Origin: Tilletia caries
Taxonomy: Eukaryota > Basidiomycota > Exobasidiomycetes > Tilletiales > Tilletiaceae
Length of the DNA: 64,000 nucleotides
Reading direction: 5' to 3'
Assembly: GCA_032718865.1 (NCBI GenBank)
Contig: JALUTQ010000032.1
Location: forward strand, 1,228,049-1,292,048
Notes under the pieces: generated by a model
The model's database searches: none
Told to the model about the DNA's origin: nothing
The model's input: only the letters and a program-made list of their open reading frames with translations
Part shown: piece by piece, positions 12,393 to 64,000 of the stretch
Position numbering within the stretch: position 1 is the stretch's first letter
Layout of the letters: each line of letters begins with the position of its first letter
Translations under genes and position numbers: made by a program

Positions 12393-12423
12393 GCCCGACA
12401 AGCCGCAGTGCGGCTTGTCGGGC
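12393..12423. repeat. Subterminal palindrome of the MULE 5' end
   Basis: Two 15-bp arms (GCCCGACAAGCCGCA and its reverse complement) around a single G, starting 30 bp inside the element. Present at the matching place in copy 2 (about 31116-31146). Possibly a transposase-binding or transcription-termination hairpin; inference only. Confidence 0.85.
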
Positions 12424-12611
12424 GAGCCAATATGATAGCGTGTCACTTACGTAAGAGACTGGGCAGCAGACGCGTCGACGCGTCCGGTCTGCCCGTCTGC
12501 TGCCTTCCTTCCACCACATCCACCGCCTTTCCAATGCTCCCCTTCCTCGTCCTTTACGCCCTTTCATTCATCCACATTATTCTCACAGTATCTTTCATTT
12601 CCTCTTTGCCA

Positions 12612-28600: not shown

Positions 28601-31176
28601 CCGCAGCTGTTCTCGAAGTGTTGTCAGCTTGTCGATCCTGGCGAAGGCAACCTCGAGCGCCTGGTTGCGCGCGGCGCGCACATGCGCAGCCGTGAGCCCA
28701 GAAGCTGGAAGTATGGCGGCTGTTGGTGCGGCTGCTGAGGCGACTACTGCTGCTGCTGCTGCTGGTGCGGCTGCGGCTGCTGCTGCTGCTGCTGAGGCGG
28801 CTGCGTCGTTGACGTCTGCTGCTGCTGCTTCTGATGCGATCGGGTCTCGAATGCGTGACTGTTGGTTCATTGTGTGGTGCTTGACCTTCCGCGAGAACTG
28901 TGCCAGCGGCAGAGCAAGTACTCGGTGAGCTAGCCACATGTGCTTGCAGGGAAACTCACTGATCCGAAATGCCTCACATGGGCAAGAAACCAGCTCCATC
29001 TCGTCGCCAAGCGCGTCCAACGACAGCTTCAGCGCGTACTGATGGCCGGAATTGCTGAAAGAATCGACCGTCACCGACTCGATGTCGCCACCGTCCTGGC
29101 GCAAGTGGGTTACGAGAGCAAGGGCGTCTGTGTACGGGACGTCTTGCGCCTTCTGTCTTGCGGCACGGTCTGCTTTGGTCAACGAGCATGCCTGAAGACC
29201 AAGACCCACTCAAAGCTCGCTGGTGTGGTAGTCCTGTAAACATTGCCGAAGGAGGAACCAAAGGAGGACGTCGACACCTTGTTTGCGCATGAGTCCGAGG
29301 TATAGTGTCTTGAGCTGGTTGTGCCAGTTTTCGATGTAATTGTTCGTGTTGACGCCCTTGTGCGGTTGCTGCCTCCACGCTCGAGCCCACATCTTCTTGT
29401 AGGGGACCCAAAAGGTCTGTATGTAGGTCGTCCAGTCCTCACATCGCCGCCAGCGCTCCATGAATTTACGAAGCTCCTCGTCGAATGACTGCGGGTCATG
29501 AGCGTTCATGAGTAGAAGGAAGTCGGAACGCGCCTCCTTCTGGGCCTTCTGGTTGTCTTGAATTCGAAGCGCGCCTTTCGGGTAGTTGCCTTCGCCCTTA
29601 ACCTTCAGCTTGCTGCTGGCCGTGACAGCTTTTTAGCATGTGCCAGTCGCAGAAAAAGACGTCAGGAGTGAGGGGGCCGGGAAAAGCCTGCCGAATCGCG
29701 CTGAGCTCTGTTGTGGAGCAGTCGATCATGAATTGACGAGGCGAGAATCGTAGGCGGGGATGTCTTCGGAGCGCTTCCAGCCAGAACGCAATAAGCTGCG
29801 CGTGCTCTGCATTTGTGAGCATAAAGGCGACTGGGATTCCGCGGCCTGTGGTGGTGCTGCGAACAACGAGGCTGTACAGCCACACTTTTTCCTTCTTGTC
29901 GAAACCGAAGCAAGTGTTGTGAGTAGCGTCCATACACACCACACTGTTCTGGCCGTGAGCAAGCAGCATGTCGACTTGCCATGAGGAAAGAAAAATATGC
30001 CGCCCATGTCTGCTCGTCCTCAGCGCAGGGGATGTCCTGATTAATGGCTGCGATGCCTCCGTTTCCTTGCACCTCGTCCACCCACTTCTGTAGGCTGCTC
30101 AGGCGGTCAGGAGCTTTTCTGGCCGCACGGAGAAGCTGTTGACGGACTTCGTTGTAGATGTCCATGTGTCTGATACGGAAAGACTCGGGGACCGACTCGA
30201 GAACCCCGCTGCTCCTCTCTAGCTGGTGAAGTTGATCCGATTCCAGCCGCAGGAGGTTTCGCATCGCTTTCCAGTCGCGCCCTTCTTCCACTCGGGCCCG
30301 AATCCAGTCTCGGACTCTTCTAGGCAGCCGGGACTCGCCAACACTTTGCAGCGAGGAAGGATCGTGCCCGGTGTGACCGTGTGTCCACTTGACATAGATT
30401 CGGTTGTCGCCAATCGGCTGACAGGCGACAAATTTAGCGGGGCAGCCGACCTTAATGGAAGGGTCACGACGACGCCGTTTTCTGGGGCTGAGATTGGGAT
30501 CTTTTGGTTTGTTCCGCGGCTGTCCTGCATGATCACACTCGTAGCGGTGACGCCAGAGAAGCATGTCAGCAGTAAGTAGTACAGCGGCAGCTGCTGCGCG
30601 CCCAGCAGCATTCACTAAGCCCCTTTGGGCGTTATGATCTGCATCATCTGCGTCTCCCTCCTGCTCGTCTAGCTCGCCCGCACGACGTGCAGCTGCTGCA
30701 TCCTCGATCTCCAGCAGGCTAGGACCTCCAACAAATCCTTCACCTGCGCCACCCGCCACTTTGTCCCGTCTATCCAGATTCCATTTCCCGGGAAGGGAAG
30801 CCATCCACCCTTCGTACTCTGCTTGGTCCTCCAGAACCACCCAGACCACCTTTGATCCCTCTGGACAGTAAGGCACTACGGCGCGGAGGGAGCGGAAGAG
30901 ACGCAGACTCGCCGCATTAAGCGACATTGGCAAAGAGGAAATGAAAGATACTGTGAGAATAATGTGGATGAATAAAAGGGCGTAAAGGACGAGGAAGGGG
31001 AGCATTGGAAAGGCGGTGGATGTGGTGGAAGGAAGGCAGCAGACGGGCAGACCGGACGCGTCGACGCGTCTGCTGCCCAGTCTCTTACGTAAGTGACACG
31101 CTATCATATTGGCTCGCCCGACAAGCCGCACTGCGGCTTGTCGGGCTCTTTTCGCTTCGGGGAAACAAGGCCCTCC
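25636..31176 (-). mobile_element. Mutator-like DNA transposon (MULE), copy 2, inverted
   Basis: Nearly identical reverse-oriented copy of the element at 12363-17881, with the same terminal repeats and subterminal palindromes (about 25652-25670 and 31116-31146). Differences are mostly one- or two-base homopolymer changes, a few substitutions (one is Asn/Asp before PSIKVGCP) and a longer GCT/GCA repeat near 28745-28800. High similarity suggests recent amplification or gene conversion. Confidence 0.92.
28415..30927 (-). pseudogene. MULE transposase, copy 2 (frame-disrupted)
   Basis: Same domain order as copy 1: zinc module, Asp-Asp-Glu core with C-x-x-H, then SWIM finger. Here the frame is intact across AARKAPDRLSSLQKWV, AFPGPLTPDVFFCDWHM and IQTFWVPYKKMWARAW, where copy 1 is broken. 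It is broken by an extra T near 29990 (after WAAYF) and an extra A near 29632 (after CDWHML). It shares with copy 1 the in-frame TGA after DYHTSEL, so neither copy encodes an uninterrupted transposase as written. Confidence 0.85.
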
Positions 31177-31185
31177 CTCCAGGTT
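31177..31185. repeat. 9-bp target-site duplication, set B partner (CTCCAGGTT)
   Basis: Reverse complement of AACCTGGAG at 17882-17890. Confidence 0.9.
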
Positions 31186-31187
31186 GC

Positions 31188-31520
31188 ACCATGACCAGTG
31201 TTGTGAGTACGGGCCCCGCCCGAACGGGTGACCGTTCGGATAATGGCTTCGGGCGGGTAAAATTGCCACACGGAGTCGCGCGGGCGGGTAGCATTCTCAC
31301 GGAAAAAATTCGGGCATTTCGGGGGGCAACCCGACGACGATTTTGCAGCGCTCGAAGCTGTCGGGCCCTAGTCGTGCCTGCCCCAGCAGCGGGCCGGGCG
31401 GGTGGTGACTGTGAGGATTTTCAAATCGGGCGGGTACAAAAACAGTGAAAACGCCACGTTACCCGGCACTACCCGGTCCGAACCCGCCCGTTACCCGAAA
31501 CTAACAACACTGACCATGAC
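31188..31520. mobile_element. hAT-type MITE (317 bp) with 8-bp target duplication
   Basis: The element body is 31196-31512. Ends are CAGTGTTGTGAGTAC and, reversed, CAGTGTTGTTAGTTTC; the CAGTGTTG terminus is typical of hAT elements. ACCATGAC is duplicated on both sides (31188-31195 and 31513-31520), the 8-bp size of hAT insertions. The interior is GC-rich with repeated CGGGCGGGT / ACCCGCCCG motifs and no ORF, so it is non-autonomous. It sits 2 bp from the MULE set-B target duplication. Confidence 0.9.
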
Positions 31521-47058: not shown

Positions 47059-47078
47059 TTAGGGTTAGGGTTAGGGTT
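47059..47078 (+). repeat. Interstitial telomeric repeat array 1 (TTAGGG)
   Basis: Three TTAGGG units plus TT, G-rich strand on plus, joined directly to AAAGTAAGAAGTG, the 3' terminus of the Penelope-like element. Confidence 0.95.
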
Positions 47079-47333
47079 AAAGTAAGAAGTGAAGTGACAA
47101 CTTGAGGGAGACTTGAAGAGGAGTCGAGGATGGCGAGTAAGACGTGGCTACAGGTGCGCTTACTGTTTCGTCCTCAAACTGGACTCTTCAGGCGTCGTCT
47201 TTATACCTTTTGGATCCCCTACGGGGACTTCTCTGATTTCTGTTGGGCATCCCTGTCAAGGTGCGCTTTCTACGGGGTTCTACGATGTTCCGAAGACGCA
47301 TCGCGCCCCAGAAAACTAAGTGAACTTGTCCCT
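47079..47333 (-). mobile_element. Penelope-like element, 3'-terminal stub
   Basis: About 255 bp match the 3' end of the PLE copies at 51361, 55585 and 59261. Similarity ends within AACTTGTCCC at 47333, where the sequence continues CTAACC, so CCCTAACC, an inverted telomeric octamer, spans the break. Severely 5'-truncated copy. Confidence 0.9.
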
Positions 47334-47339
47334 AACCAT

Positions 47340-47760
47340 ATGTACAGACAGTCCAACCTGTTGGACACGTCGGGACACTGCTCCAGTGCCCGAAACTTAA
47401 AAAGAGTCTAAATGTCCAACCGCATGAAATTAAGGTTTTATTACAACCGGTTGTAAGTCCAACCGGATTCAGGCCTGTCCAACCGCATGTCCAACCACAA
47501 TTTTCTAATACCCTTAAATTGTGGCTTGGTCCAACCGCCATTTCGGCCGTCCAACCCACATTTAACGTTGTCCAACCAATATTTTTGGCTGTCCAACCCA
47601 CATTTAACGTTGTCCAACCAATATTTTTGGCTGTCCAACCATCATTTAAGGTTGTCCAACCACTATTGTCAGTCGTCCAACCACCATGTAGTGCCGTCCA
47701 ACCTACTATGTCCCCCGTCCAACTGCACGTCCTCCCTCTTAAGCCGTCCTTTTCCCATGT
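47340..47760. repeat. GTCCAACC minisatellite
   Basis: GTCCAACC recurs about 15 times at 18-36-bp spacing, with AT-rich interior (ATTTAACGTT, ATATTTTTGGCT). The best-ordered part is 47545-47700. Reads open in two frames, producing apparent repeat proteins on both strands, which I reject as genes. Confidence 0.9.
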
Positions 47761-48718
47761 CCGTCTGGGCGGCATCGGTCCCTTGGGCGCTCCGGCTCTT
47801 CCTCACATAACAACAACACGCATATCGTCCTCATTCATTTATTGATGAAGCCAGTTTCCTCTCCCTTATTTTTATTCTCTTCTATCATTTACCGCCAAAC
47901 CCATAACCCTCCCCCGCCTCACCCAATTTTTCCTGTCGCCCTATTGTGTGTTACTTGATTTTTATTCCGCTCCCACTTGCGCAAGAAAATCACCTCTCTC
48001 GTTCGTCGGCCCCTCTGTGGGTGCCCTCTCCTCAGAAAAATTAATATTTCTCCGTTCGGCAGCTCCCGCGGTATATTCCAATCCCATTTATTTCTTTCCA
48101 GTTTTTCCCGTCCCCTTTCACTATTTTCCTATTAAAATGTGCGATGCTCACGACCTCCACCAGCCCGTAATTCTCGTCTTTCTTCTTACTTTTTCTTCTC
48201 GCCCGTCACCCGTGGCAGGTGCTTGCTAAAAAAATATAAGTTGTCGGTGTCCGGGAAAATTTTGAAATTGCGCCCAGCGAGCCATCCCACGCTCACAGTC
48301 TATCTTTAAAAAAATTGCGCCCTTCGACGCACTCCCACCCGCACACCTTATATGTTATCCACTTCTTTTTTCAACCCTGAATTGATGTCCAACATAATAT
48401 ATTGATATGCACAATGGCCGTGCATGGGAAAGGGCCGTCCAGCAAAAACAATTTAAACTGCGCCCGGCCAGACAACCCACGCATACACTCTTATCCACAA
48501 ATTTGTTGGACCCTTTTGACGCTCTCCCATTGACCACTTATATTTAATCCACATCTTTTTCCAATCCTGAATTATTGCCACAAAAATTTCTTTATGTGCA
48601 CACTGGACGTGCGCGGGAAAAAGGAAATAGAAGGCATTGGGTCCGAGCTAGTAAACTACGTTGCCATATGGGCTGTTACAATTTATCCCAATGTCGCCTA
48701 TTGCCATCCTCCGCGCAT
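47761..48718. other. AT-rich subtelomeric spacer
   Basis: No ORF with motifs. Two related segments (about 48270-48370 and 48450-48560) repeat the theme of TTGCGCCC / CTGCGCCC, then CCCACGC, CACTC, TTATCCAC and CCTGAATT. This suggests a degenerate tandem duplication of about 180 bp. Confidence 0.45.
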
Positions 48719-51321
48719 TCACTCCTCCCATTCTACCGTGGTGCCGTTGACGGCGATGTCATTCATCATGATGAGGACGGCGGCGACGGCGGGGAAGGCC
48801 CTGTATACCTTGATGTCGTTCATGAAGACGATGGTCTCCTGCCACTCGGGGGCCAAAAGTCCTGGTCCTCGCGGTGGGCCCAAGGTGTACTCCGGGTTGT
48901 ACATGCCCTGTGCGTAGGAGACGGCCTCGTCGCGCACGTCCTCGTTGTGGGTGAGGAGGAGGAGAATGCCTCTGACGGCATCCCGCGTCCTTTGGGAGGG
49001 TTCCGTGCCTCCCTTCTTCTCGCAGTTGCAGTAGGCGTCCGGCAGGCCGCAGGGCCAGCAGGAGAAGGGGGCGGTCCAGTCGTTGTCCTCTCGGTATTTG
49101 ATCTGGGCGCCTAAGTTGACATCCTTCATTGGACACTTTGCGGGCTTGTGCATCTCGTCCCGCTGCACGGCGCAGCACATTGGGCAGTTTGTGTCGGTCA
49201 TCCTCAAGTTGGCCTTGAGCATCGCGCGAAAGATCTTGCGGGCATGATTTGTGATGCCGTTATGGAAGTAGGTGATCGCCACCCTTGCTGGACTGTGTGT
49301 TGAGGGGCTCCATCTGTTTACCTTTCGTGGATACGGGGAGGATGTGCCGGGGGCACCCGCGTGTGGGGACTTGAACACCGGCACGCGCTCGGAGAGAGGG
49401 CGCATGACGACCGGGAACTGTGGGGCTTTGTAGGCGGATGGGGAATCGACTTGGCCGCCGGAGGAGGACGATTCGGCACTTGAAGACGGCTGGCTTCCTC
49501 CGTCCTGCATCGGCCAAGCGCGTGGCGTGGGAGGGCGGTCTGCCAAGGCCAGCTTCCTCTGTCCTGGGGGCCCATAATCGGGCGAGGAGGCGGGGCGGAT
49601 TTGCTTCCTCGCGAAAGGGCGGGGAGTTGTCGTGCCTGTGGGCTCTTCAATCCTTGCCTTCTTTACCTTGCTCTGCGAAAAGGTTATGTACGTGTCAGTA
49701 ACACGTCTTACGCCCGCCTTCCGTGCGTTTCCTTGTCTACTCACACTTGCTGGTAAGAACGGAGACTGGAAGGAATTGAAGAGAGGCCAGTGCCTTTTTG
49801 TTTGAAGGAGCCGGTGGTGTTTCGACCATATTCCGCTTAGCCGGCGGTTGCTCCTCGGCCGGCTCGATGAGTCGTCTCTTACCGTCCCTCACGGTCTTCG
49901 TTGGCTCGGGAGCGCCGTCGTATGTGGCCATGCAGACGGAGCACCACTCGGCGGCGAGGTCGATACAGCTTACGATGCGTCCGTCGAGCCACTGGGAGAT
50001 GGGCTGGCGCAAGCATCGCTTTCCGGCGAAGAGCATGCCGACGGCGTCGTCGTCGGAGCGAGGGTGGATTCCGTCCGGTTCGGGTGTTTGGGAGCCGTTG
50101 ATGTAGTTGTAGAAGTGGGCCTCGGCCCGCTGTCCACGCCGACCAGCTCGTCCTGTTGCCTGTAAGGCGGCCGCCATGGAGTACAGGTGGCCGAGGATGG
50201 CCACGAAGTCGAGGGCCTCGTAGTCGATGCCTGTGCCTGCGCCGTATGTGGCCACCATGGTGCATGCGATCCGAGCCTTGAAGTTGCTCATGTTCTCCTC
50301 CATCTCCAGGCGCTCCTTGGGGTCCTCGGTGGAGTAGTAGCCCGGGCAACCGAGGGCTTTCGCGACCCTTCTGACGGTTGGCTTGTCCCGGCAGATGATG
50401 AGGGCTTGCCGGCCTTGATTGGGCCCGGTGGTGAGGCGTTCGATTGCGTCCCGAATGTGGAGCATGGCCCCAGCCTCGTTGGTGACGTCGATGAGGGAGT
50501 ATGCGATGTTTTTCGCGGTTGGTGCCCTCCCTCAGGAAGCGGATGGGCATGCACGTTGCCCTCTCGAGGCTCTCCTCGCAGGCGGGCGGGATGGTCGCGG
50601 AGAGGTAGACGAACTGCTTGTTCGGCAGTCGCTCTGGGATCTTGGCAAAGTATTCGATGTCCTGTACGATGGAGAAGAAGAAAGAAAGAGATGTTGTCAG
50701 TATCATTGTTTGTTTGAACCCACATCGATAGCTGTTGTCACGTACCTTACGGAAGAGTTCATCAAAGAGGACGTGGGCCTCGTCGACGAAGACCCTTCGG
50801 AGGGCGGCCTGGATCTCTGGATCGGCGACCCACTGGAGGAAGGGTGTCATGTAGGTCCTGCTGAGGGAGACGATGACGATCTGTGGGCCGTTGGGGCCGA
50901 TGGTGAAGGGCTCGTTCCAGAGTGCGTACTTGATGCCCTTCTCCGTGCAGACGCGCTTGATGTCGTCGATGAGGGAGAGGTAGGGGACGACGAGGAGGGA
51001 GAAGGAGGGGATGTCCTTGCGTCCGAGGGTGGCGTCCACCTGCCAGAGGAGGGACTTGCCTCCGTTGGTCTTGACGATGCAGGCGACGTTGGTCATGCCT
51101 TGCCCCATGATTGCCAAGGTGTCGCTGATTGGCAGCGGGAGCGGCCGTCTTGGTGCACTCCCTTTGGTGAGAGAGAGGACGGCCTTGAGGGTGTTGGGGG
51201 AGAGGGGCCTTCGTCCTTGGAATCCGTCGAAGGGAGGGGCGAACCAGTTGCGGCCGGTTGAGAGTGTGCCTGTGTGAGCGCGGATGTTGAAGTTGCTGAC
51301 GGGGGTGGGCGTCTGAGGCAA
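48719..51321 (-). pseudogene. Telomere-linked RecQ-like helicase (TLH), 5'-truncated
   Basis: SF2 helicase with RecQ-like motifs: CIVKTNGGKSLLWQV (Walker A), VFVDEAHVLFDEL (DEAH), FVYLSATIPPACEESLE, FLREGTN, QALIICRDKPTVRRVAKAL, then TMVATYGAGTGIDYEALDFV and QATGRAGRRGQ. After the helicase comes CLRQPISQWLDG and a Cys segment, and from 49680 leftward the TLH tail with CPMCCAVQRDEMHKPAKC and CWPCGLPDAYCNC. One intron is clear (50662-50745). A frame break at 50509-50513 sits in a T5 run; one base fewer restores NREN. The junction of the last exon near 49680-49745 is not settled. The frame has no ATG upstream of Walker A and runs into the TTAGGG array at 51323, so the 5' end is lost. Family known from fungal subtelomeres (Ustilago UTASa, S. 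pombe tlh1). Confidence 0.85.
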
Positions 51322-51322
51322 C

Positions 51323-51360
51323 TTAGGGTTAGGGTTAGGGTTAGGGTTAGGGTTAGGGTT
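51323..51360 (+). repeat. Interstitial telomeric repeat array 2 (TTAGGG)
   Basis: Six TTAGGG units plus TT. It joins the truncated 5' end of the TLH (left) to the 3' end of PLE copy A (right). Confidence 0.97.
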
Positions 51361-52404
51361 AAAGTAAGAAGTGAAGTGACAACTTGAGGGAGACTTGAAG
51401 AGGAGTCGAGGATGGCGAGTAAGACGTGGCTACAGGTGCGCTTACTGTTTCGTCCTCAAACTGGACTCTTCAGGCGTCGTCTTTATACCTTTTTGGATCC
51501 CCTACGGGGACTTCTCTGATTTCTGTTGGGCATCCCTGTCAAGGTGCGCTTTCTACGGGGTTCTACGATGTTCCGAAGACGCATCGCGCCCCAGAAAACT
51601 AAGTGAACTTGTCCCAACAGAAGAAAGAAGGGTAACTAATTTGGGGGAGTCCCTCAAATTTCGATGTGGCGTTGTGGCTTTGGGGTGGTGCCCCAAATTA
51701 AGTGCCCTCGGCCTTTGGATCGAAGTACCCTTTTTCTCAGAATGATCCGTATGACCTTTCATCTCGGTGTCAGCCGATGGGTCCTAGCTCCCTTTTTCAG
51801 GGGGGGTTCTCATTCGAGTACTGACGTGGCAGTGCTGGGTCTTAATCAGGAGACCGACGGATAGCCGATTACCACAGCCAAATTTGGGGGGGGGTGTGGG
51901 GACCTCAACCAAATTGGGGGGGTCTTTCGGGGCTAAGTCGGTGATCTGTCATAAGTCTCAGGTAGCCGAGATGTGGGGATATAGGTCTCAGAGAGGTTTG
52001 TTTCTTCTTTTTTTGTCTTTCTGTCTATGTCGATGGTCCCATATAGGATGGCGTCATCGTTCATTCTCCATTTGTAACTCTAAGTCATAAATGGATTCAC
52101 AGAAAGTACAAATCAGATTGTGTATGGCTTTCTAGTTACTAACCGGTGATCGCTCTTAGAACTGTCTTTGTACTAGACTAGTTAATCGAGACGATACTTC
52201 TCTATGTATAAGGTGCTGGAACCTTATACTAGCCATCGGTGTTCTACTTTTTGAAAATGTCAATTTTTTTTGGCATTACTAGGCCTAAGCCGTTCCCTAA
52301 ATAGGATATACCCGTCTGACCGACCCACTAAGGGGACTGCGGGAAAAATAATGCCAAAAAAATCGTCGAAAAAAATCGGCGAAAAAAAATTGACGACCAT
52401 ACGC

Positions 52405-52462
52405 GGATTCGAACAAGGGACTTGGAGTGATACAGGAATCAAACTTCCTACCACTGGTCCAT
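52405..52462 (-). other. tRNA-like A-box/B-box module in PLE 3' region
   Basis: Read on minus, TGGACCAGTGGTAGG (52447-52461) resembles a tRNA A box and GTTCGAATCC (52405-52414) a B box, with about 32 bases between. Stems do not fold into a full cloverleaf by eye. The module recurs in copies B (about 56618-56676) and C (about 60292-60350). Confidence 0.4.
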
Positions 52463-52555
52463 AGTCCCCGCCGAATTTGTTAAACTACTTACCCTCAAGC
52501 ACTCATATACTACATTCCTACTAAGTTTATAGTATCCATATGGTACTTTCTTAAG

Positions 52556-54111
52556 TTAAGAGTTAACAATGTTATCCTTAAACCTTTCTATGGTCTCTTT
52601 GTTCTTACGGTTGAATAAGTCTCCTAGAGCGGGAGGTTTACTTTGGCTATGTATGACTCTAGTGTTAGTTGGAAGAAATTCTAGACTTTCCCAAGTCGTT
52701 AGAATAGCATCCCATACTGTCTTCATGTTAGTACCTTCCCATAAGGGATTATATGTACTCTTAAAGATGAGAGTTTCAACCTTGTCTTTCTCAGTTGGAG
52801 TACACTCTGTCTTCCCTGTTAAGGTGAATGCACGAGTGTTCTGATAATCGACCGTTAGGAAGACTTTGTTGAGGAACCCGTGAGGGTAACCTCGTGCACG
52901 CAGTCTAAGATAGAACTTTTTTTCCGTATCTCTAAGAAGCTGTTCAATTCTGAGCAGTTCCTTACATGTCGTAGCAGTTCAGCTTTTTATCCATGCTTTC
53001 TTAACATGTAGTGGATGATACGAGGACCATGGTATATACTGGTATGCATTCGTGGGCTTTTGATATGTCTTTGTTAGGAGTTGAATGTTGTCTTTAACTT
53101 TAGCAGTTACGACTTCAACATCTAAGAAGGTCATTGAGCTTTTTTTGAAACATTCCAGGTGAACTTAAAGTTACTATGCTCGCTTTCAAAGTTATCGATG
53201 AAGTTTTTGTGGAGAGTCTTTGTTGCCTCTGACTACCACAAAGATGTCATCAAGATACCTGCCATAGTACTTTATGTTCTGTCCCTGTCCCGAGTTAGTC
53301 TGAGATGTCCCAGTATACTCGGCTTCTGCCATAACCAAGTTGGCATACATGGGAGCACACGAGGTGCCCATGGCTGTGCCTTTAACTTGTAGGTAGTACT
53401 TTCCCATAAAGGTAAAGTAGTTATTACGAAGAATCTTTTCTAGTAATTTTAGTACTAGAGTTATGGTCTCTATAGGCAGAGAGGAGCGTTTAAGTATATT
53501 TGCCATGCATTCTAGACCCCAGTCTGTAGGGATGCTAGGGTACATTGCTTCAACGTCTCCTGAAATCAGCCAGATGTCCTCTTCAGGGTCTGGAGATCCA
53601 ATGGAAGTATATCTCATTGGCAGGGTTTGTAAGAAGGTAGTCGTGTCCTTAAGGATCCAAGGGTAGTCCTTGACTATGACCTTAAGTTTTTTTCTGCAAC
53701 CCAGATTGATGCATTCGTATAGAATGTATTAAAGCTAGGCACTATAGGTCTTCCTAGGACAGGACTCTTATGTACTTTAGGAAGTAACTTAAAGTAAGGA
53801 AGGGATGATTCTACATCGGATCTCACAAGTAGCCACTTACGTTCCTGAAGGGTCAAGGACCCTCCAAGTTTGTAAATGGTTTCCTTGATCCATCTTCTGT
53901 CATCTAACCAATCTGGTTCTTCCACTTCCTTGTAAACTGCCTTGTCGGTCAGTTGTCTTAAGGCTTCTTTATAGTACCACTCGACCGGTACGATTGCCAT
54001 ACCCATATTCTTATCTGTAGGTAGAATTAGTAAGGACTCTTCTCTTAAGAAGATGTCCAGGGTCTTTATGGCATGGATCGGTGGGTTAGGCCGAGTGAGT
54101 TTCTTACTCAT
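52556..54111 (-). CDS. PLE reverse transcriptase, copy A
   Basis: About 518 codons, starting at ATG 54111. Motifs in order: LLILPTDKNMGMAIVPVEWY (RT0 of PLEs), FKLLPKVHKSPVLGRPIVPS, SGDVEAMYPSIP (motif A with the first catalytic Asp), VKGTAMGTSCAPMYANLVMA (motif B), YYGRYLDDIFVVVRG (motif C, catalytic DD), and the thumb-like NAYQYIPWSSYHPLHVKK with AELLRHVRNC. The K-V-H-K and A-Y-Q-Y-I features are those of Penelope-like enzymes, which are close to telomerase RT. A frame change in the T7 run near 53688-53694 is the same in all three copies; a smaller one near 53440 differs. The start lies 8 nt after the stop of the upstream ORF. Confidence 0.85.
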
Positions 54112-54119
54112 TAAAGATT

Positions 54120-54653
54120 CTAAGATGGCATAGCCTTTGCTAATTCCTTTTTTTCAAATTTAGCATTGCCCTTAGGTGCTTCCGTGTTAGATACAATATG
54201 GAATTTAGGGTTAAATTCTTTCTTGTATTGATTCTTACGGTAAGCCCATTTCCATCTTAGTCTTCGAACGAAGTCCCCATATGAATTCTTCCAAAGTTCT
54301 TCCTTTGGGTTAGGAGTGGGAATGAATTTCATATTGTAAGAGATAATTCTCTGTACAGGGTGTGGGACCGGTGTCTTCGAAAGGTTATGGACTTGATCGT
54401 TGAAGGATCTTGAGTCGATATATTCCAGTGAGGAATGTCTTGCGAGGAACAGCGTTCGTTCTGAAAGGGAGGCAGTAAAGAATTCCACTGGGTAAGTACT
54501 TATCTTTGCTATATCAAAGTTAGAAGGTACTGACCAGTTGCCCTTAGGGACTTTGGACTTGTTCTTTTTTTGCCGGGGGGGCCTTAGACTTAGCCTTGGT
54601 CTTTTTGAACCTTTAGCTTTTTTTGTTGTCTGGCTTCTTCCCTTTGTGGACAC
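54120..54653 (-). CDS. PLE basic ORF upstream of RT, copy A
   Basis: 178 codons open from 54653, without ATG near its start (first codon readable GTG). Lys/Arg-rich N-terminus (KKAKGSKRPRLSLRPPRQKK), then VEFFTASLSERTLFLARHSS and RIISYNMKFIPTPNPKEELW. It ends AKAMPS-TAG, 8 nt before the RT ATG, in all three copies. It may be the C-terminal part of ORF1 joined by splicing or frameshift, or the N-terminus of the RT protein. Confidence 0.55.
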   Translation of the reverse strand: MSTKGRSQTTKKAKGSKRPRLSLRPPRQKKNKSKVPKGNWSVPSNFDIAKISTYPVEFFTASLSERTLFLARHSSLEYIDSRSFNDQVHNLSKTPVPHPVQRIISYNMKFIPTPNPKEELWKNSYGDFVRRLRWKWAYRKNQYKKEFNPKFHIVSNTEAPKGNAKFEKKELAKAMPS

Positions 54654-54665
54654 TTGATTTTTGCT

Positions 54666-55444
54666 TTACCTTTTTCCCTTGCCTTTGAATGGCTGGGCCG
54701 GTGCTTTGCTTTTTCGAAGTGCCTTTAGCGAGCGACTCCTTGACCAGTTCACCAACTGCTTGTTGCAGCGATTTACCTTTTTTTCTTGGAGTGCAAGCTG
54801 AGCTTCATAGGCTTTCTGTTGCTTAGATTCTTTAAATTCTTTTTTTCCTTAAGTGACTTGTTAGCCGCTTGAAGGTAAAGTTTATCGAGATCTTTAGCAA
54901 AGGTTGTCATGAGGACCTCCACTTTACCTCTGACGAGGGGAATGTCTGATCCAACATGATCCTTCAGAGCCTCAGCTTTGGCTTCCAGTGCACTACGAAG
55001 GTTTAGGAGGAGGGCCTGAGTATTGCCCTCAATGACCAGCTGGTCGACTTCCGTCTTCCTAGCATCGATCAGAATGTTGAGGTAGAACCTCAAGCATTCT
55101 TCCTTCTTCTCAGCCATCCTTTCCTGAAGAGCTCGGAAAGCATCTGGGTTTGACTCCAAAGCTTCCTTACTAATCTGGAGAGGAGGAGAGTGCACTGTGC
55201 CTTTAATGGCAGGAGGGAAGTGGTCTGGGCCTAGGCCCTTTGCACGTTCCAACGCAGCCAAGTTTTCCCTGGCCTTGAAGTATTTTGAATACACGGAGGA
55301 CGCTCTTGCGAGGTGCTCTCTCGTGATATTCTCAAGGTCGGGCAGGCTCAGCTTAGCTGAAGCAGGTCCCGAGGGATACTGCTTGTCAGATACCTTGATG
55401 GTAGTCTGACCGCCTGAGCCACCATGGAGTCCTTCGACGTCCAT
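54666..55444 (-). CDS. PLE ORF1, coiled-coil protein, copy A
   Basis: About 259 codons from ATG 55444. Highly charged and helical: NITREHLARASSVYSKYFKA, LQERMAEKKEECLRFYLNIL, RSALEAKAEALKDHVGSD, then a Lys-rich tail SKAPAQPFKGKGKR. No known domain; a nucleic-acid-binding or assembly role like a gag is plausible. The frame is broken in the T7 run near 54841. Copy B has T5 there and is open to the tail, so this break is probably a homopolymer error. Confidence 0.6.
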
Positions 55445-55578
55445 GGCCGTGCCAGATTGGTCACGTAGAGCTTGCGCTCCAGGCGTGGGGGAGGGATGTG
55501 GGGGGGAAGGGAGAGGAGAGAGGAGTAGGAGAAGGGGGAACTACAGTACTCATCGTGAAAGGTGTTGTCGAGGTGGAG

Positions 55579-55584
55579 TAGGGT
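55579..55584 (+). repeat. Single telomeric unit at the PLE A/B junction
   Basis: TAGGGT followed by GAAAGTAAGAAG. Only one unit separates the 5' end of copy A from the 3' end of copy B. Confidence 0.75.
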
Positions 55585-58500
55585 GAAAGTAAGAAGTGAA
55601 GTGACAACTTGAGGGAGACTTGAAGAGGAGTCGAGGATGGCGAGTAAGACGTGGCTACAGGTGCGCTTACTGTTTCGTCCTCAAACTGGACTCTTCAGGC
55701 GTCGTCTTTATACCTTTTTGGATCCCCTACGGGGACTTCTCTGATTTCTGTTGGGCATCCCTGTCAAGGTGCGCTTTCTACGGGGTTCTACGATGTTCCG
55801 AAGACGCATCGCGCCCCAGAAAACTAAGTGAACTTGTCCCAACAGAAGAAAGAAGGGTAACTAATTTGGGGGAGTCCCTCAAATTTCGATGTGGCGTTGT
55901 GGCTTTGGGGTGGTGCCCCAAATTAAGTGCCCTCGGCCTTTGGATCGAAGTACCCTTTTTCTCAGAATGATCCGTATGACCTTTCATCTCGGTGTCAGCC
56001 GATGGGTCCTAGCTCCCTTTTCAGGGGGGGGGTTCTCATTCGAGTACTGACGTGGCAGTGCTGGGTCTTAATCAGGAGACCGACGGATAGCCGATTACCA
56101 CAGCCAAATTTGGGGGTGTGGGGACCTCAACCAAATTGGGGGTCTTTCGGGGCTAAGTCGGTGATCTGTCATAAGTCTCAGGTAGCCGAGATGTGGGGAT
56201 ATAGGTCTCAGAGAGGTTTGTTTCTTCTTTTTTGTCTTTCTGTCTATGTCGATGGTCCCATATAGGATGGCGTCATCGTTCATTCTCCATTTGTAACTCT
56301 AAGTCATAAATGGATTCACAGAAAGTACAAATCAGATTGTGTATGGCTTTCTAGTTACTAACCGGTGATCGCTCTTAGAACTGTCTTTGTACTAGACTAG
56401 TTAATCGAGACGATACTTCTCTATGTATAAGGTGCTGGAACCTTATACTAGCCATCGGTGTTCTACTTTTTGAAAATGTCAATTTTTTTGGCATTACTAG
56501 GCCTAAGCCGTTCCCTAAATAGGATATACCCGTCAGACCGACCCACTAAGGGGACTGCGGGAAAATAATGCCAAAAAATCGTCGAAAAAATCGGCGAAAA
56601 AAAATTGACGACCATACGCGGATTCGAACAAGGGACTTGGAGTGATACAGGAATCAAACTTCCTACCACTGGTCCATAGTCCCCGCCGAATTTGTTAAAC
56701 TACTTACCCTCAAGCACTCATATACTACATTCCTACTAAGTTTATAGTATCCATATGGTACTTTCTTAAGTTAAGAGTTAACAATGTTATCCTTAAACCT
56801 TTCTATGGTCTCTTTGTTCTTACGGTTGAATAAGTCTCCTAGAGCGGGAGGTTTACTTTGGCTATGTATGACTCTAGTGTTAGTTGGAAGAAATTCTAGA
56901 CTTTCCCAAGTCGTTAGAATAGCATCCCATACTGTCTTCATGTTAGTACCTTCCCATAAGGGATTATATGTACTCTTAAAGATGAGAGTTTCAACCTTGT
57001 CTTTCTCAGTTGGAGTACACTCTGTCTTCCCTGTTAAGGTGAATGCACGAGTGTTCTGATAATCGACCGTTAGGAAGACTTTGTTGAGGAACCCGTGAGG
57101 GTAACCTCGTGCACGCAGTCTAAGATAGAACTTTTTTTCCGTATCTCTAAGAAGCTGTTCAATTCTGAGCAGTTCCTTACATGTCGTAGCAGTTCAGCTT
57201 TTTATCCATGCTTTCTTAACATGTAGTGGATGATACGAGGACCATGGTATATACTGGTATGCATTCGTGGGCTTTTTGATATGTCTTTGTTAGGAGTTGA
57301 ATGTTGTCTTTAACTTTAGCAGTTACGACTTCAACATCTAAGAAGGTCATTGAGCTTTTTTTGAAACATTCCAGGTGAACTTAAAGTTACTATGCTCGCT
57401 TTCAAAGTTATCGATGAAGTTTTTGTGGAGAGTCTTTGTTGCCTCTGACTACCACAAAGATGTCATCAAGATACCTGCCATAGTACTTTATGTTCTGTCC
57501 CTGTCCCGAGTTAGTCTGAGATGTCCCAGTATACTCGGCTTCTGCCATAACCAAGTTGGCATACATGGGAGCACACGAGGTGCCCATGGCTGTGCCTTTA
57601 ACTTGTAGGTAGTACTTTCCCATAAAGGTAAAGTAGTTATTACGAAGAATCTTTTTCTAGTAATTTTTAGTACTAGAGTTATGGTCTCTATAGGCAGAGA
57701 GGAGCGTTTAAGTATATTTGCCATGCATTCTAGACCCCAGTCTGTAGGGATGCTAGGGTACATTGCTTCAACGTCTCCTGAAATCAGCCAGATGTCCTCT
57801 TCAGGGTCTGGAGATCCAATGGAAGTATATCTCATTGGCAGGGTTTGTAAGAAGGTAGTCGTGTCCTTAAGGATCCAAGGGTAGTCCTTGACTATGACCT
57901 TAAGTTTTTTTCTGCAACCCAGATTGATGCATTCGTATAGAATGTATTAAAGCTAGGCACTATAGGTCTTCCTAGGACAGGACTCTTATGTACTTTAGGA
58001 AGTAACTTAAAGTAAGGAAGGGATGATTCTACATCGGATCTCACAAGTAGCCACTTACGTTCCTGAAGGGTCAAGGACCCTCCAAGTTTGTAAATGGTTT
58101 CCTTGATCCATCTTCTGTCATCTAACCAATCTGGTTCTTCCACTTCCTTGTAAACTGCCTTGTCGGTCAGTTGTCTTAAGGCTTCTTTATAGTACCACTC
58201 GACCGGTACGATTGCCATACCCATATTCTTATCTGTAGGTAGAATTAGTAAGGACTCTTCTCTTAAGAAGATGTCCAGGGTCTTTATGGCATGTATCGGT
58301 GGGTTAGGCCGAGTGAGTTTCTTACTCATTAAAGATTCTAAGATGGCATAGCCTTTGCTAATTCCTTTTTTTCAAATTTAGCATTGCCCTTAGGTGCTTC
58401 CGTGTTAGATACAATATGGAATTTAGGGTTAAATTCTTTCTTGTATTGATTCTTACGGTAAGCCCATTTCCATCTTAGTCTTCGAACGAAGTCCCCATAT

Positions 58501-59189
58501 GAATTCTTCCAAAGTTCTTCCTTTGGGTTAGGAGTGGGAATGAATTTCATATTGTAAGAGATAATTCTCTGTACAGGGTGTGGGACCGGTGTCTTCGAAA
58601 GGTTATGGACTTGATCGTTGAAGGATCTTGAGTCGATATATTCCAGTGAGGAATGTCTTGCGAGGAACAGCGTTCGTTCTGAAAGGGAGGCAGTAAAGAA
58701 TTCCACTGGGTAAGTACTTATCTTTGCTATATCAAAGTTAGAAGGTACTGACCAGTTGCCCTTAGGGACTTTGGACTTGTTCTTTTTTTGCCGGGGGGCC
58801 TTAGACTTAGCCTTGGTCTTTTGAACCTTTAGCTTTTTTTGTTGTCTGGCTTCTTCCCTTTGTGGACACTTGATTTTGCTTTACCTTTTTCCCTTGCCTT
58901 TGAATGGCTGGGCCGGTGCTTTGCTTTTTCGAAGTGCCTTTAGCGAGCGACTCCTTGACCAGTTCACCAACTGCTTGTTGCAGCGATTTACCTTTTTTTC
59001 TTGGAGTGCAAGCTGAGCTTCATAGGCTTTCTGTTGCTTAGATTCTTTAAATTCTTTTTCCTTAAGTGACTTGTTAGCCGCTTGAAGGTAAAGTTTATCG
59101 AGATCTTTAGCAAAGGTTGTCATGAGGACCTCCACTTTACCTCTGACGAGGGGAATGTCTGATCCAACATGATCCTTCAGAGCCTCAGC
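55585..59189 (-). mobile_element. Penelope-like element, copy B (5'-truncated)
   Basis: 3.6 kb, nearly identical to copy A over its length. RT region complement(56771..58329), basic ORF complement(58338..about 58870), ORF1 tail complement(58881..59189). It ends inside ORF1 at AGCCTCAGCTT, equal to about 54980 in copy A, where TTAGGG repeats begin. Homopolymers differ from copy A at many places. Confidence 0.92.
56771..58329 (-). CDS. PLE reverse transcriptase, copy B
   Basis: Same motifs and start context as copy A (RT0, motif A DVEAMYPSIP, motif B GTAMGTSCAPMY, motif C YLDD). Compared with copy A it has an extra T and extra A in runs near 57655 and 57665, which shift the frame between motifs A and B. 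It also shares the T7 run at about 57904. Confidence 0.8.
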
Positions 59190-59260
59190 TTAGGGTTAGG
59201 GTTAGGGTTAGGGTTAGGGTTAGGGTTAGGGTTAGGGGGTTAGGGTTAGGGTTAGGGTTA
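59190..59260 (+). repeat. Interstitial telomeric repeat array 3 (TTAGGG)
   Basis: About eleven units with one variant (TTAGGGGG). Joins the truncated end of PLE copy B to the 3' end of copy C. Confidence 0.97.
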
Positions 59261-62200
59261 GTAAGAAGTGAAGTGACAACTTGAGGGAGACTTGAAGAGG
59301 AGTCGAGGATGGCGAGTAAGACGTGGCTACAGGTGCGCTTACTGTTTCGTCCTCAAACTGGACTCTTCAGGCGTCGTCTTTATACCTTTTGGATCCCCTA
59401 CGGGGACTTCTCTGATTTCTGTTGGGCATCCCTGTCAAGGTGCGCTTTCTACGGGGTTCTACGATGTTCCGAAGACGCATCGCGCCCCAGAAAACTAAGT
59501 GAACTTGTCCCAACAGAAGAAAGAAGGGTAACTAATTTGGGGGGGAGTCCCTCAAATTTCGATGTGGCGTTGTGGCTTTGGGGTGGTGCCCCAAATTAAG
59601 TGCCCTCGGCCTTTGGATCGAAGTACCCTTTTTTTCTCAGAATGATCCGTATGACCTTTCATCTCAGTGTCAGCCGATGGGTCCTAGCTCCCTTTTTCAG
59701 GGGGTTCTCATTCGAGTACTGACGTGGCAGTGCTGGGTCTTAATCAGGAGACCGACGGATAGCCGATTACCACAGCCAAATTTGGGGGTGTGGGGACCTC
59801 AACCAAATTGGGGGTCCTTCGGAGCTAAGTCGGTGATCTGTCATAAGTCTCAGGTAGCCGAGATGTGGGGATATAGGTCTCAGAGAGGTTTGTTTCTTCT
59901 TTTTGTCTTTCTGTCTATGTCGATGGTCCCATATAGGATGGCGTCATCGTTCATTCTCCATTTGTAACTCTAAGTCATAAATGGATTCACAGAAAGTACA
60001 AATCAGATTGTGTATGGCTTTCTAGTTACTAACCGGTGATCGCTCTTAGAACTGTCTTTGTACTAGACTAGTTAATCGAGACGATACTTCTCTATGTATA
60101 AGGTGCTGGAACCTTATACTAGCCATCGGTGTTCTACTTTTTGAAAATGTCAATTTTTTTGGCATTACTAGGCCTAAGCCGTTCCCTAAATAGGATATAC
60201 CCGTCTGACCGACCCACTAAGGGGACTGCGGGAAAAATAATGCCAAAAATCGTCGAAAAAAATCGGCGAAAAAAAATTGACGACCATACGCGGATTCGAA
60301 CAAGGGACTTGGAGTGATACAGGAATCAAACTTCCTACCACTGGTCCATAGTCCCCGCCGAATTTGTTAAACTACTTACCCTCAAGCACTCATATACTAC
60401 ATTCCTACTAAGTTTATAGTATCCATATGGTACTTTCTTAAGTTAAGAGTTAACAATGTTATCCTTAAACCTTTCTATGGTCTCTTTGTTCTTACGGTTG
60501 AATAAGTCTCCTAGAGCGGGAGGTTTACTTTGGCTATGTATGACTCTAGTGTTAGTTGGAAGAAATTCTAGACTTTCCCAAGTCGTTAGAATAGCATCCC
60601 ATACTGTCTTCATGTTAGTACCTTCCCATAAGGGATTATATGTACTCTTAAAGATGAGAGTTTCAACCTTGTCTTTCTCAGTTGGAGTACACTCTGTCTT
60701 CCCTGTTAAGGTGAATGCACGAGTGTTCTGATAATCGACCGTTAGGAAGACTTTGTTGAGGAACCCGTGAGGGTAACCTCGTGCACGCAGTCTAAGATAG
60801 AACTTTTTTTCCGTATCTCTAAGAAGCTGTTCAATTCTGAGCAGTTCCTTACATGTCGTAGCAGTTCAGCTTTTATCCATGCTTTCTTAACATGTAGTGG
60901 ATGATACGAGGACCATGGTATATACTGGTATGCATTCATGGGCTTTTTGATATGTCTTTGTTAGGAGTTGAATGTTGTCTTTAACTTTAGCAGTTACGAC
61001 TTCAACATCTAAGAAGGTCATTGAGCTTTTTTTGAAACATTCCAGGTGAACTTAAAGTTACTATGCTCGCTTTCAAAGTTATCGATGAAGTTTTTGTGGA
61101 GAGTCTTTGTTGCCTCTGACTACCACAAAGATGTCATCAAGATACCTGCCATAGTACTTTATGTTCTGTCCCTGTCCCGAGTTAGTCTGAGATGTCCCAG
61201 TATACTCGGCTTCTGCCATAACCAAGTTGGCATACATGGGAGCACACGAGGTGCCCATGGCTGTGCCTTTAACTTGTAGGTAGTACTTTCCCATAAAGGT
61301 AAAGTAGTTATTACGAAGAATCTTTTTCTAGTAATTTTTAGTACTAGAGTTATGGTCTCTATAGGCAGAGAGGAGCGTTTAAGTATATTTGCCATGCATT
61401 CTAGACCCCAGTCTGTAGGGATGCTAGGGTACATTGCTTCAACGTCTCCTGAAATCAGCCAGATGTCCTCTTCAGGGTCTGGAGATCCAATGGAAGTATA
61501 TCTCATTGGCAGGGTTTGTAAGAAGGTAGTCGTGTCCTTAAGGATCCAAGGGTAGTCCTTGACTATGACCTTAAGTTTTTTTCTGCAACCCAGATTGATG
61601 CATTCGTATAGAATGTATTAAAGCTAGGCACTATAGGTCTTCCTAGGACAGGACTCTTATGTACTTTAGGAAGTAACTTAAAGTAAGGAAGGGATGATTC
61701 TACATCGGATCTCACAAGTAGCCACTTACGTTCCTGAAGGGTCAAGGACCCTCCAAGTTTGTAAATGGTTTCCTTGATCCATCTTCTGTCATCTAACCAA
61801 TCTGGTTCTTCCACTTCCTTGTAAACTGCCTTGTCGGTCAGTTGTCTTAAGGCTTCTTTATAGTACCACTCGACCGGTACGATTGCCATACCCATATTCT
61901 TATCTGTAGGTAGAATTAGTAAGGACTCTTCTCTTAAGAAGATGTCCAGGGTCTTTATGGCATGGATCGGTGGGTTAGGCCGAGTGAGTTTCTTACTCAT
62001 TAAAGATTCTAAGATGGCATAGCCTTTGCTAATTCCTTTTTTTCAAATTTAGCATTGCCCTTAGGTGCTTCCGTGTTAGATACAATATGGAATTTAGGGT
62101 TAAATTCTTTCTTGTATTGATTCTTACGGTAAGCCCATTTCCATCTTAGTCTTCGAACGAAGTCCCCATATGAATTCTTCCAAAGTTCTTCCTTTGGGTT

Positions 62201-62910
62201 AGGAGTGGGAATGAATTTCATATTGTAAGAGATAATTCTCTGTACAGGGTGTGGGACCGGTGTCTTCGAAAGGTTATGGACTTGATCGTTGAAGGATCTT
62301 GAGTCGATATATTCCAGTGAGGAATGTCTTGCGAGGAACAGCGTTCGTTCTGAAAGGGAGGCAGTAAAGAATTCTACTGGGTAAGTACTTATCTTTGCTA
62401 TATCAAAGTTAGAAGGTACTGACCAGTTGCCCTTAGGGACTTTGGACTTGTTCTTTTTTTGCCGGGGGGCCTTAGACTTAGCCTTGGTCTTTTGAACCTT
62501 TAGCTTTTTTTGTTGTCTGGCTTCTTCCCTTTGTGGACACTCGATTTTTGCTTTACCTTTTTCCCTTGCCTTTGAATGGCTGGGCCGGTGCTTTGCTTTT
62601 TCGAAGTGCCTTTAGCGAGCGACTCCTTGACCAGTTCACCAACTGCTTGTTGCAGCGATTTACCTTTTTTTCTTGGAGTGCAAGCTGAGCTTCATAGGCT
62701 TTCTGTTGCTTAGATTCTTTAAATTCTTTTTTTCCTTAAGTGACTTGTTAGCCGCTTGAAGGTAAAGTTTATCGAGATCTTTAGCAAAGGTTGTCATGAG
62801 GACCTCCACTTTACCTCTGACGAGGGGAATGTCTGATCCAACATGATCCTTCAGAGCCTCAGCTTTGGCTTCCAGTGCACTACGAAGGTTTAGGAGGAGG
62901 GCCTGAGTAT
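59261..62910 (-). mobile_element. Penelope-like element, copy C (5'-truncated)
   Basis: 3.65 kb. RT region complement(60443..62000), basic ORF from about 62540 to 62009, ORF1 tail to 62910. It ends at GGGCCTGAGTATT, about 45 bp further into ORF1 than copy B (equal to about 55024 in copy A). The different truncation point shows that it is an independent insertion, not a tandem duplication of copy B. Confidence 0.92.
60443..62000 (-). CDS. PLE reverse transcriptase, copy C
   Basis: Same motif series as copies A and B. The thumb region here is open for 65 codons (60742-60939, AYQYIPWSSYHPLHVKKAWI). It shares the frame change at the T7 run (about 61575) and the run lengths of copy B near 61325. 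Confidence 0.8.
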
Positions 62911-63015
62911 TTGGGGTTAGGGGTTAGGGTTAGGGTTAGGGGTTAGGGTTAGGGTTAGGGTTAGGGGTTAGGGTTAGGGGTTAGGGTTAGGGGTTAGGGT
63001 TAGGGTTAGGGTTAG
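62911..63015 (+). repeat. Interstitial telomeric repeat array 4 (TTAGGG/TTAGGGG)
   Basis: About 16 units, mixing TTAGGG with TTAGGGG, unlike the purer arrays to the left. Joins PLE copy C to the distal unassigned segment. Confidence 0.97.
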
Positions 63016-64000
63016 CTGGACGAATATAGAGGACGACAGTGAGCTGAGACCATGCCAAGGATGCAGCCAAGCGAGAAGCTGGAACCGTTGAATGAGTCGG
63101 AAAGGATCGGCTCGGGAAAAGGAGCATTTCAGGGTCGGAGACCGGTAGGACATCGAGGTGTGGGTCGGGCAAGCAGCAGCACGCCTTCGTCCATGCAGAA
63201 GAGGACTGCCGCAATGGCGCAGATGAAGGCGGCAAGGGATGCGAAAAAGCGGGTGTGCGTGCACGGCCATGGACCGGGGGTAACGCGTTCTGAGATGGTA
63301 TCGATGCTTGAATATCCGAACGAATAGCGAGTAGCTGCGCCTGAACGTGCTCGATCGAAGCAATCCGAGAGCTGACCATTATGGTTGGCGTGACCGCAGG
63401 AGGGTACGACGGCCACGGGGAAGCAGACGCCTGTCCTGAGGCGAGAAGGATCCGTCTCGCAGTAATCCATCCCTGCCGAAACCTGTCAAGCGCAAGTGCA
63501 AAACCATCGAACCGGATGGATGAGTCCCGTGACGATGTTAGGCGAGCATGATCAGTGAACGAGTCACCGGGAGAGACGGCGACGCCGAGGCAGCCGAACC
63601 AACGTTTGAAGCGGTCGACAATGAAGGGGGAACTGCTTTGGCGGACGGGACCAGTTCTTGGAAAGGAGTTAGACGCGGAGCCAATACCGAGATTGATGTG
63701 GATGTTGAAGTTGGGGACGGAAAAGTCGAGGGTGAAGGAGCGGGAGCCGACAGTACCGAGGTTAGTACCGATGTAGACGGGGGCTGTACGGAAAGGTCAT
63801 CTGACGAAGGAGCTGGAGACCGCAGTGCCGAAGTGGATACCGATGTGGGGGAGCGGAGCTCGTGGGTCTGGATGCAGGGCGGCTGGAATGTAAGGGTCGG
63901 GGCTGGTTTAGAAGAAGGATCCGCGCCGATCAGCTGTGCATACGTGCGGGGTGCGGGGGGATGCAACGGATTGAGAGCGTTTAAGAGGGGCTGCAGGTAG
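63016..64000 (-). other. Distal subtelomeric segment, unassigned minus-strand ORFs
   Basis: Two minus-strand open regions: 63966-63538 (Ser/Thr/Pro-rich, contains YAQLIGADPSSKPAPTLTFQ) and 63379-63016 (begins SSRIASIEHVQAQLLAIRSD, a possible coiled coil, then Pro-rich). The second runs straight into the telomeric array. Together they look like the start of a low-complexity or gag-like protein cut by the array. I cannot name it. The window ends before the chromosome terminus. Confidence 0.35.

What the first reader, a model, noticed from the sequence alone, without database searches (positions are those of the whole stretch)
51323..63015. Three Coprina-like, endonuclease-free Penelope elements stacked head-to-tail with TTAGGG joints
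Seen: copies at 51361, 55585 and 59261 all have their 3' end fused to TTAGGG on the same strand. Two are 5'-truncated at different points, each followed by new TTAGGG. Known: PLEs lacking the GIY-YIG endonuclease (Athena, Coprina) attach to telomeric 3' overhangs in several eukaryotes including basidiomycetes. Inferred: each copy was primed by the G-rich overhang of the then chromosome end, and the end was later re-capped, so left-to-right order is old-to-young. The window preserves at least four rounds.
Basis: partly seen in the sequence, partly recalled or inferred. Interest (0 to 1): 0.9.

Follow-up and report, generated by a model that had tools for sequence, protein, structure and literature searches.

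The report
Telomere-stacking Penelope retroelement in bunt fungus
A 4.2-kb retroelement in a Tilletia (bunt fungus) genome attaches copy after copy to chromosome ends, and the short telomere repeats buried between copies record how it happened; this is a well-preserved new example of a known kind of element.

Summary
The stack is real, with one correction. Copies A (51362-55583) and C (~59260-62911) are fused at their 3' ends to TTAGGG. Copy B (55586-59189) is not: it is joined to A's intact 5' end by GGAG-TAGGGTG-AAAG. A fourth, 254-bp copy lies at 47080-47332.

In the host assembly (38.1 Mb, 40 contigs, a Tilletia species) the exact 3' end occurs 79 times. All 79 have the polarity expected at contig ends; the 77 that could be measured lie within 27.2 kb of one. 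Joints come in three spellings: TTAGGGTT-AAAG (41), TTAGGGTG-AAAG (12) and tandem GTAGGGTG-AAAG (26). The reverse transcriptase is predicted to fold like telomerase, no GIY-YIG domain was found, and a hammerhead-like motif lies 70 nt from the 3' end. It is an endonuclease-free telomeric Penelope-like element; the "Coprina" label was not tested.

Best reading: element RNA carries a CCCTA tail that pairs with the G-rich overhang and is reverse-transcribed; truncated ends are later capped by telomere repeats. Left-to-right order is not simply old-to-young: B was not telomere-primed, C looks shared with another chromosome end and later shortened, and copies differ by only 2-4 substitutions in about 2.5 kb.

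The parts
47059..47079 (+). TTAGGG array 1 (buried telomere)
47080..47332 (-). copy D: only the 3'-terminal ~254 bp of the element, 5'-truncated
47336..51322 (-). segment with a helicase gene (DEAD below its cut-off, Helicase_C above); also at C9, C23 and, internally, C39; here it ends directly at TTAGGG
51323..51361 (+). TTAGGG array 2 (6 repeats)
51362..55583 (-). copy A: full unit, 4222 bp, 3' end at the left
51420..51484 (-). hammerhead-ribozyme-like motif of copy A; predicted cut between 51430 and 51431, 70 nt from the element 3' end (other copies at 47138-47202, 55645-55709, 59317-59381)
52556..55540 (-). coding region of copy A in five open stretches, some overlapping (RT core 53192-53728); frame breaks attributed to homopolymer runs whose length depends on the assembly strand
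55579..55585 (+). TAGGGTG: telomere-like heptamer at the A/B tandem joint
55586..59189 (-). copy B: 5'-truncated (unit position ~3620), 3' end joined to A
59190..59261 (+). TTAGGG array 3 (11 repeats, fourth from the joint is TTAGGGGG)
59260..62911 (-). copy C: 5'-truncated at unit position ~3663
62913..63015 (+). TTAGGG array 4 with TTAGGGG variants
63016..64000 (.). non-element sequence at the contig end; 98% match to internal C1:1407557-1408535 (real junction or assembly chimera, undecided)

Best explanation
This is one family of endonuclease-free, telomere-specific Penelope-like retroelement, 4.2 kb per unit, in a Tilletia species that has its own telomerase gene. Element RNA runs past the unit's 3' end into telomere-complementary sequence. 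That is either CTTT-AACCCTAA, where the source copy borders a telomere array, or CTTT-CACCCTAC, where the source copy sits inside a tandem array whose joint has one telomere-like repeat hard-wired. The CCCTA tail pairs with the G-rich 3' overhang of a chromosome end, and the telomerase-like RT copies the RNA from there. This gives the joints TTAGGGTT-AAAG and TTAGGGTG-AAAG. Ends that stop short or later erode are capped by telomere repeats, and the next round starts there. Shown: location, polarity, joint spellings, absence of a GIY-YIG match, TERT-like predicted fold, scattered 5' ends with microhomology. Inferred: the RNA tail, overhang priming, capping by telomerase. Not shown: transcription, RT activity, ribozyme activity.
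Confidence: 0.85

Rival explanations
1. The stacks are mainly products of DNA recombination between chromosome ends (break-induced replication, unequal exchange, circles), with retrotransposition rare or long past.
For: Copies are nearly identical (A-B 2 substitutions in 2470, A-C 4 in 2501). The truncation, array and copy C are shared with C36, and the truncation plus a similar array with C7. The helicase segment is present at several places. Tandem neighbours share haplotype class in 12 of 21 pairs (shuffled mean 5.6, p 0.001).
Against: Dozens of copies start at the same 3' nucleotides after different flanks, and 5' ends lie at many different positions, which is the pattern of primed copying from RNA. 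Two telomere-joint spellings, and copies only 58-85 bp long, fit RNA templates better. Left-end copies keep open RT frames up to 531 aa.
Confidence: 0.2
2. Copies inserted into pre-existing telomere arrays, as TRAS and SART elements do (recalled), not onto bare ends.
For: Elements lie between telomere arrays on both sides in many places.
Against: No endonuclease found. Arrays keep proximal-variant to distal-perfect polarity at the element joint, and truncated copies abut arrays with microhomology. Buried arrays number 1 to 15 repeats, no larger than the roughly 100-155-bp terminal tracts at C1, C4 and C28.
Confidence: 0.05
3. Interstitial TTAGGG and the tandem order are long-read assembly artefacts at contig ends.
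For: Homopolymer lengths depend on assembly strand; the C21 end is noisy; the C27 contig tail may be chimeric.
Against: Consistent joints at 26 of 80 contig ends (C40 counted, though its length was not retrieved), and terminal telomeres in place at C1, C4 and C28.
Confidence: 0.04

Closest known systems
[quoted passage not shown] paper not held, known here from passages of PMC3846280, PMC6431247 and PMC12477314)
   Same: PLE-type RT without GIY-YIG, attachment to chromosome ends, 5' truncation followed by telomere repeats, also reported from fungi
   Different: Here one family with three counted joint spellings across a whole assembly; clade (Coprina, Athena) not tested
Athena / Terminons of bdelloid rotifers (passages of PMC6431247 and PMC12477314)
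   Same: Hammerhead motif near the 3' end next to reverse-complement telomere repeats; head-to-tail arrays; 5'-truncated copies
   Different: 4.2-kb compact unit, not up to 40 kb; no accessory domains recognised; 70 nt between predicted cut and element end
Telomere-localised PLE plus RecQ helicase genes in Mycosphaerella graminicola (passages of PMC4522978)
   Same: Fungal telomeric PLE with fixed orientation and telomere repeats at its 3' end; a subtelomeric helicase gene family in the same genome
   Different: Different fungus; tandem joint and two telomere-joint spellings were not in the passages read
PLEs at Agaricus bisporus chromosome ends (passages of PMC7473861)
   Same: Basidiomycete PLEs at chromosome ends
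   Different: No joint-level description in the passages read
Canonical Penelope/Poseidon (passages of PMC11167929)
   Same: Tandem or partial-tandem arrangement, hammerhead motif, telomerase-like RT
   Different: Those carry a GIY-YIG endonuclease; none found here
HeT-A/TART/TAHRE of Drosophila (only the start of the abstract of PMC5537684, in search listings)
   Same: Retroelement additions at chromosome ends
   Different: Non-LTR elements in an organism without telomerase; here a telomerase RNA-binding domain is present

Membership tests
Endonuclease-deficient telomeric PLE | RT of the PLE/telomerase type | tested here: met
   RVT_1 match; predicted model (pLDDT 90.1) has TERTs as its best fold matches, other RTs close behind. 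PLE motifs themselves are recalled, not matched to a named PLE.
Endonuclease-deficient telomeric PLE | no GIY-YIG endonuclease | tested here: met
   Three frames upstream and three downstream of the RT frame, and the RT frame itself, gave no GIY-YIG match at E up to 5; none among the precomputed domains of the 120 homologues listed of 883
Endonuclease-deficient telomeric PLE | 3' end joined to telomere repeats, one polarity, at chromosome ends | tested here: met
   79 of 79 polarity; 53 telomere joints and 26 tandem joints
Endonuclease-deficient telomeric PLE | 5' truncations capped by telomere repeats | tested here: met
   27 measured joints with excess microhomology; copy D in the window is an exception, followed by other sequence
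Endonuclease-deficient telomeric PLE | hammerhead motif near the 3' end | tested here: inconclusive
   For: descriptor match in all four window copies and nowhere else in 64 kb, 0.05 expected; motif fold -12.4 against optimum -13.6 kcal/mol. Against: Rfam did not report it; folding energy no better than shuffles (z 0.51 and -0.09). Activity not tested.
Endonuclease-deficient telomeric PLE | two ORFs | tested here: inconclusive
   L085 has a 283-aa and a 516-aa frame, but frames carry homopolymer artefacts; relative P0002 has one 816-aa protein
Coprina clade | RT groups with Coprina references | not tested
   No named clade references at hand. The tree of 55 rows groups it with hits named from Puccinia, Microbotryum and Rhodotorula (97/92)
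Terminon | giant unit with accessory genes | tested here: not met
   4222-bp unit; only RVT_1 above a curated cut-off
Canonical Penelope | GIY-YIG domain | tested here: not met

The most novel reading that the evidence does not exclude
The tandem unit has hard-wired one telomere repeat at its joint, so every unit's RNA carries its own telomere-pairing site, and the template is multimeric or circular (hammerhead-processed) RNA. One priming event would then lay down several head-to-tail units. This would explain why 24 of 24 intact 5' ends run straight into another unit, why none is capped by TTAGGG, and why tandem neighbours share haplotypes more often than shuffled pairs. It would be an RNA-templated counterpart of rolling-circle telomere lengthening, working beside telomerase.
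Probability: 0.2. Interest if true: 0.75.

Novelty: new member of a known kind. Interest (0 to 1): 0.47.

Why it matters
Here one assembly holds 79 countable joints of a telomere-attached retroelement, and their spelling appears to report which kind of source copy supplied the RNA. That makes open questions about Penelope-like elements testable from sequence: what the RNA tail is, whether tandem units come from one template, and how truncated ends are capped. It also shows that a stack of buried telomeres cannot be read as a simple age ladder.

Tried and rejected
Rfam search for a hammerhead or other RNA: only two matches, both below gathering score. The hammerhead-like region folds no better than shuffled sequence (z 0.51 and -0.09); the fuller descriptor was written after a simpler pattern had found the motif. 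ARAGORN found no tRNA, although a tRNA-like stretch with recalled box A and box B resemblance lies at 52395-52475; its predicted fold is a hairpin, not a cloverleaf. A second, divergent PLE family at C21 was suspected and rejected: these are noisy copies of the same element. A fixed transcription start giving a recurrent 5' end was looked for and not seen: truncation points are scattered. One 69-71-bp copy (C5) ends at the predicted hammerhead cut, but five short copies end between 58 and 85 bp, so this is weak. Pfam on whole frames with stops as X returned nothing even where the RT lies, so shorter pieces were used with the RT frame as positive control. PDB sequence search gave group II intron, DRT, retron, diversity-generating and other reverse transcriptases and no chain named telomerase at E up to 1. 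The haplotype contrast of tandem pairs (12 of 21) against telomere-separated pairs (3 of 11) is not significant on its own (Fisher p 0.15). For the microhomology count 29 truncation joints seen were typed, two could not be placed, and at least two seen there (C34:869 and a 31-bp copy on C1) were not typed. The shared C27/C36/C7 truncation was counted once. Two noisy copies were dropped from the variant list, and a short copy in that table takes the alignment of its longer neighbour. Allele 3125T, which looked rare (3 of 14), is carried by 7 of 26 copies and was dropped as evidence; the nine-site haplotype is used instead. Preceding copies B and C36:1789705 differ at three scored sites, so the shared block starts inside B. 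Class labels for one search were set by hand. No paper was read whole: of seven papers passages were seen, the rest only as search listings. Recalled labels: Coprina, box A/B, the hammerhead core, TRAS/SART, PLE sequence motifs.
Full report
What is in the window. The window is C27:1228049-1292048 of a 38.1-Mb, 40-contig assembly and ends at the contig end. A glucosidase gene in the window is 92% identical to Tilletia walkeri and 85-87% to T. horrida over 91% of its length, so the host is a Tilletia species; the species was not determined. Four TTAGGG arrays lie in the last 17 kb. Array 1 carries a 254-bp 3' fragment of the element. Array 2 carries full copy A. Array 3 carries copy C. Array 4 is followed by 985 bp that match an internal site on C1 at 98%.

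Genome-wide pattern. An exact 29-mer from the element's 3' end occurs 79 times. All 47 copies on the minus strand lie within 22.8 kb of a contig start. All 32 on the plus strand lie at high coordinates, 30 of them within 27.2 kb of a known contig end; the length of C40, with two copies, was not retrieved. They occupy 26 of 80 contig ends. The search counts exact matches only, so damaged copies are missed.

Joints. Combining, the 79 3' ends are preceded by TTAGGGTT (41), TTAGGGTG (12) or a tandem joint (26). Upstream sequence was read for 75; the other four are placed by the pattern. Two of the 41 are imperfect (window copy C and C30:11677), and three of the 26 differ from the common tandem joint GGAG-TAGGGTG-AAAG (C5:1097, C34:4452, C35:1549320). 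All 24 exact intact 5' ends run straight into another copy, and none into TTAGGG. Buried arrays hold 1 to 15 repeats. In arrays of four or more, non-canonical repeats are rarer next to the element joint (6 of 120) than farther away (34 of 215), as expected if the element joined the young outer part of a telomere. Truncated ends share 2 or more bases with the telomere phase at 17 of 27 measured joints, against 19% in simulation. Copy D in the window is an exception: its truncated end is followed by other sequence, not TTAGGG.

Copy relationships. Outside homopolymers, A and B differ at 2 of 2470 sites and A and C at 4 of 2501. Fifteen variants are shared by two or more copies. Tandem neighbours share haplotype class in 12 of 21 pairs (shuffled mean 5.6, p 0.001), telomere-separated neighbours in 3 of 11 (mean 2.9); the two ratios do not differ significantly from each other (p 0.15). 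Window copy C shares with C36:1793393 an 11-repeat array whose fourth repeat has a longer G-run, the truncation point of the preceding copy, and a nine-site haplotype that fits no other of 26 copies compared; C7 shares the truncation and a similar array but not the haplotype. The preceding copies differ at three scored sites, so the shared block begins inside B. At C36 the copy is full length and continues in tandem, so C's truncation in the window is probably a later terminal loss. The stack is therefore part retrotransposition, part exchange.

A hammerhead-like motif. On the coding strand, 65 nt near the 3' end contain the hammerhead core (CUGANGA, stem II, GAAA, stem III, UH) in all four window copies. 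The descriptor finds nothing else in the 64-kb window; 20 first-order resampled sequences gave 0.05 hits each on average. The motif fold has -12.4 kcal/mol against an optimum of -13.6. The predicted cut lies 70 nt from the element end. Against it: Rfam does not report it, the region folds no better than shuffles, and activity is untested.

Mechanism. Best reading: RNA that continues past the unit end carries CCCTA, either from a neighbouring telomere array (giving TTAGGGTT joints) or from the hard-wired repeat of the tandem joint (giving TTAGGGTG joints). It pairs with a G-rich overhang and is copied by a telomerase-like RT. Telomere repeats later cap whatever end is left. Location, polarity, spelling and microhomology are shown; RNA tail, priming and capping enzyme are inferred. 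A few alleles support inheritance of the spelling (363G and 1043T with the G spelling; 1297C with the T spelling), one does not discriminate (956A).

Relation to what is known. Passages of PMC3846280, PMC6431247, PMC12477314, PMC4522978 and PMC7473861 describe endonuclease-free PLEs at telomeres, their hammerhead plus telomere-complement 3' ends, head-to-tail arrays, and fungal cases, one in a genome with telomere-linked RecQ helicase genes. The element is thus a new member of a known kind. A literature search joining Tilletia, telomere and retrotransposon listed six papers; one was opened, and the word Penelope does not occur in its main text. No claim of priority is made beyond these searches.

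Noticed in passing
window 51362-62911 and copies at other contig ends: Homopolymer lengths of the element depend on which assembly strand carries them (for example T7 at right ends, T8 at left ends, at three of seven T runs), pointing to a strand-dependent assembly error.
   Followed up: yes
window 52395-52475, minus strand: tRNA-like stretch with box A and box B resemblance (recalled) in the element; not called by ARAGORN; the 40 scored genome matches (of 61 candidates) lie at contig ends.
   Followed up: partly
window 63016-64000: Contig tail after the last telomere array matches internal C1:1407557-1408535 at 98%; translocation or chimeric read.
   Followed up: partly
window 47336-51322: Helicase-bearing segment also at C9 (one full and one partial copy in tandem), C23 and C39 (internal); its left edge abuts the truncated copy D at GTCCCTAACC.
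   Followed up: partly
window 12408-13433 (+) and 29662-31269 (-): Two ORFs with nearly the same protein in opposite orientation, with matching tandem repeats at 15023 and 28454: an inverted duplication or transposon pair.
   Followed up: no
window 47529-47723: Imperfect 21/42-bp tandem repeat (GTCCAACC...) just beyond copy D.
   Followed up: no
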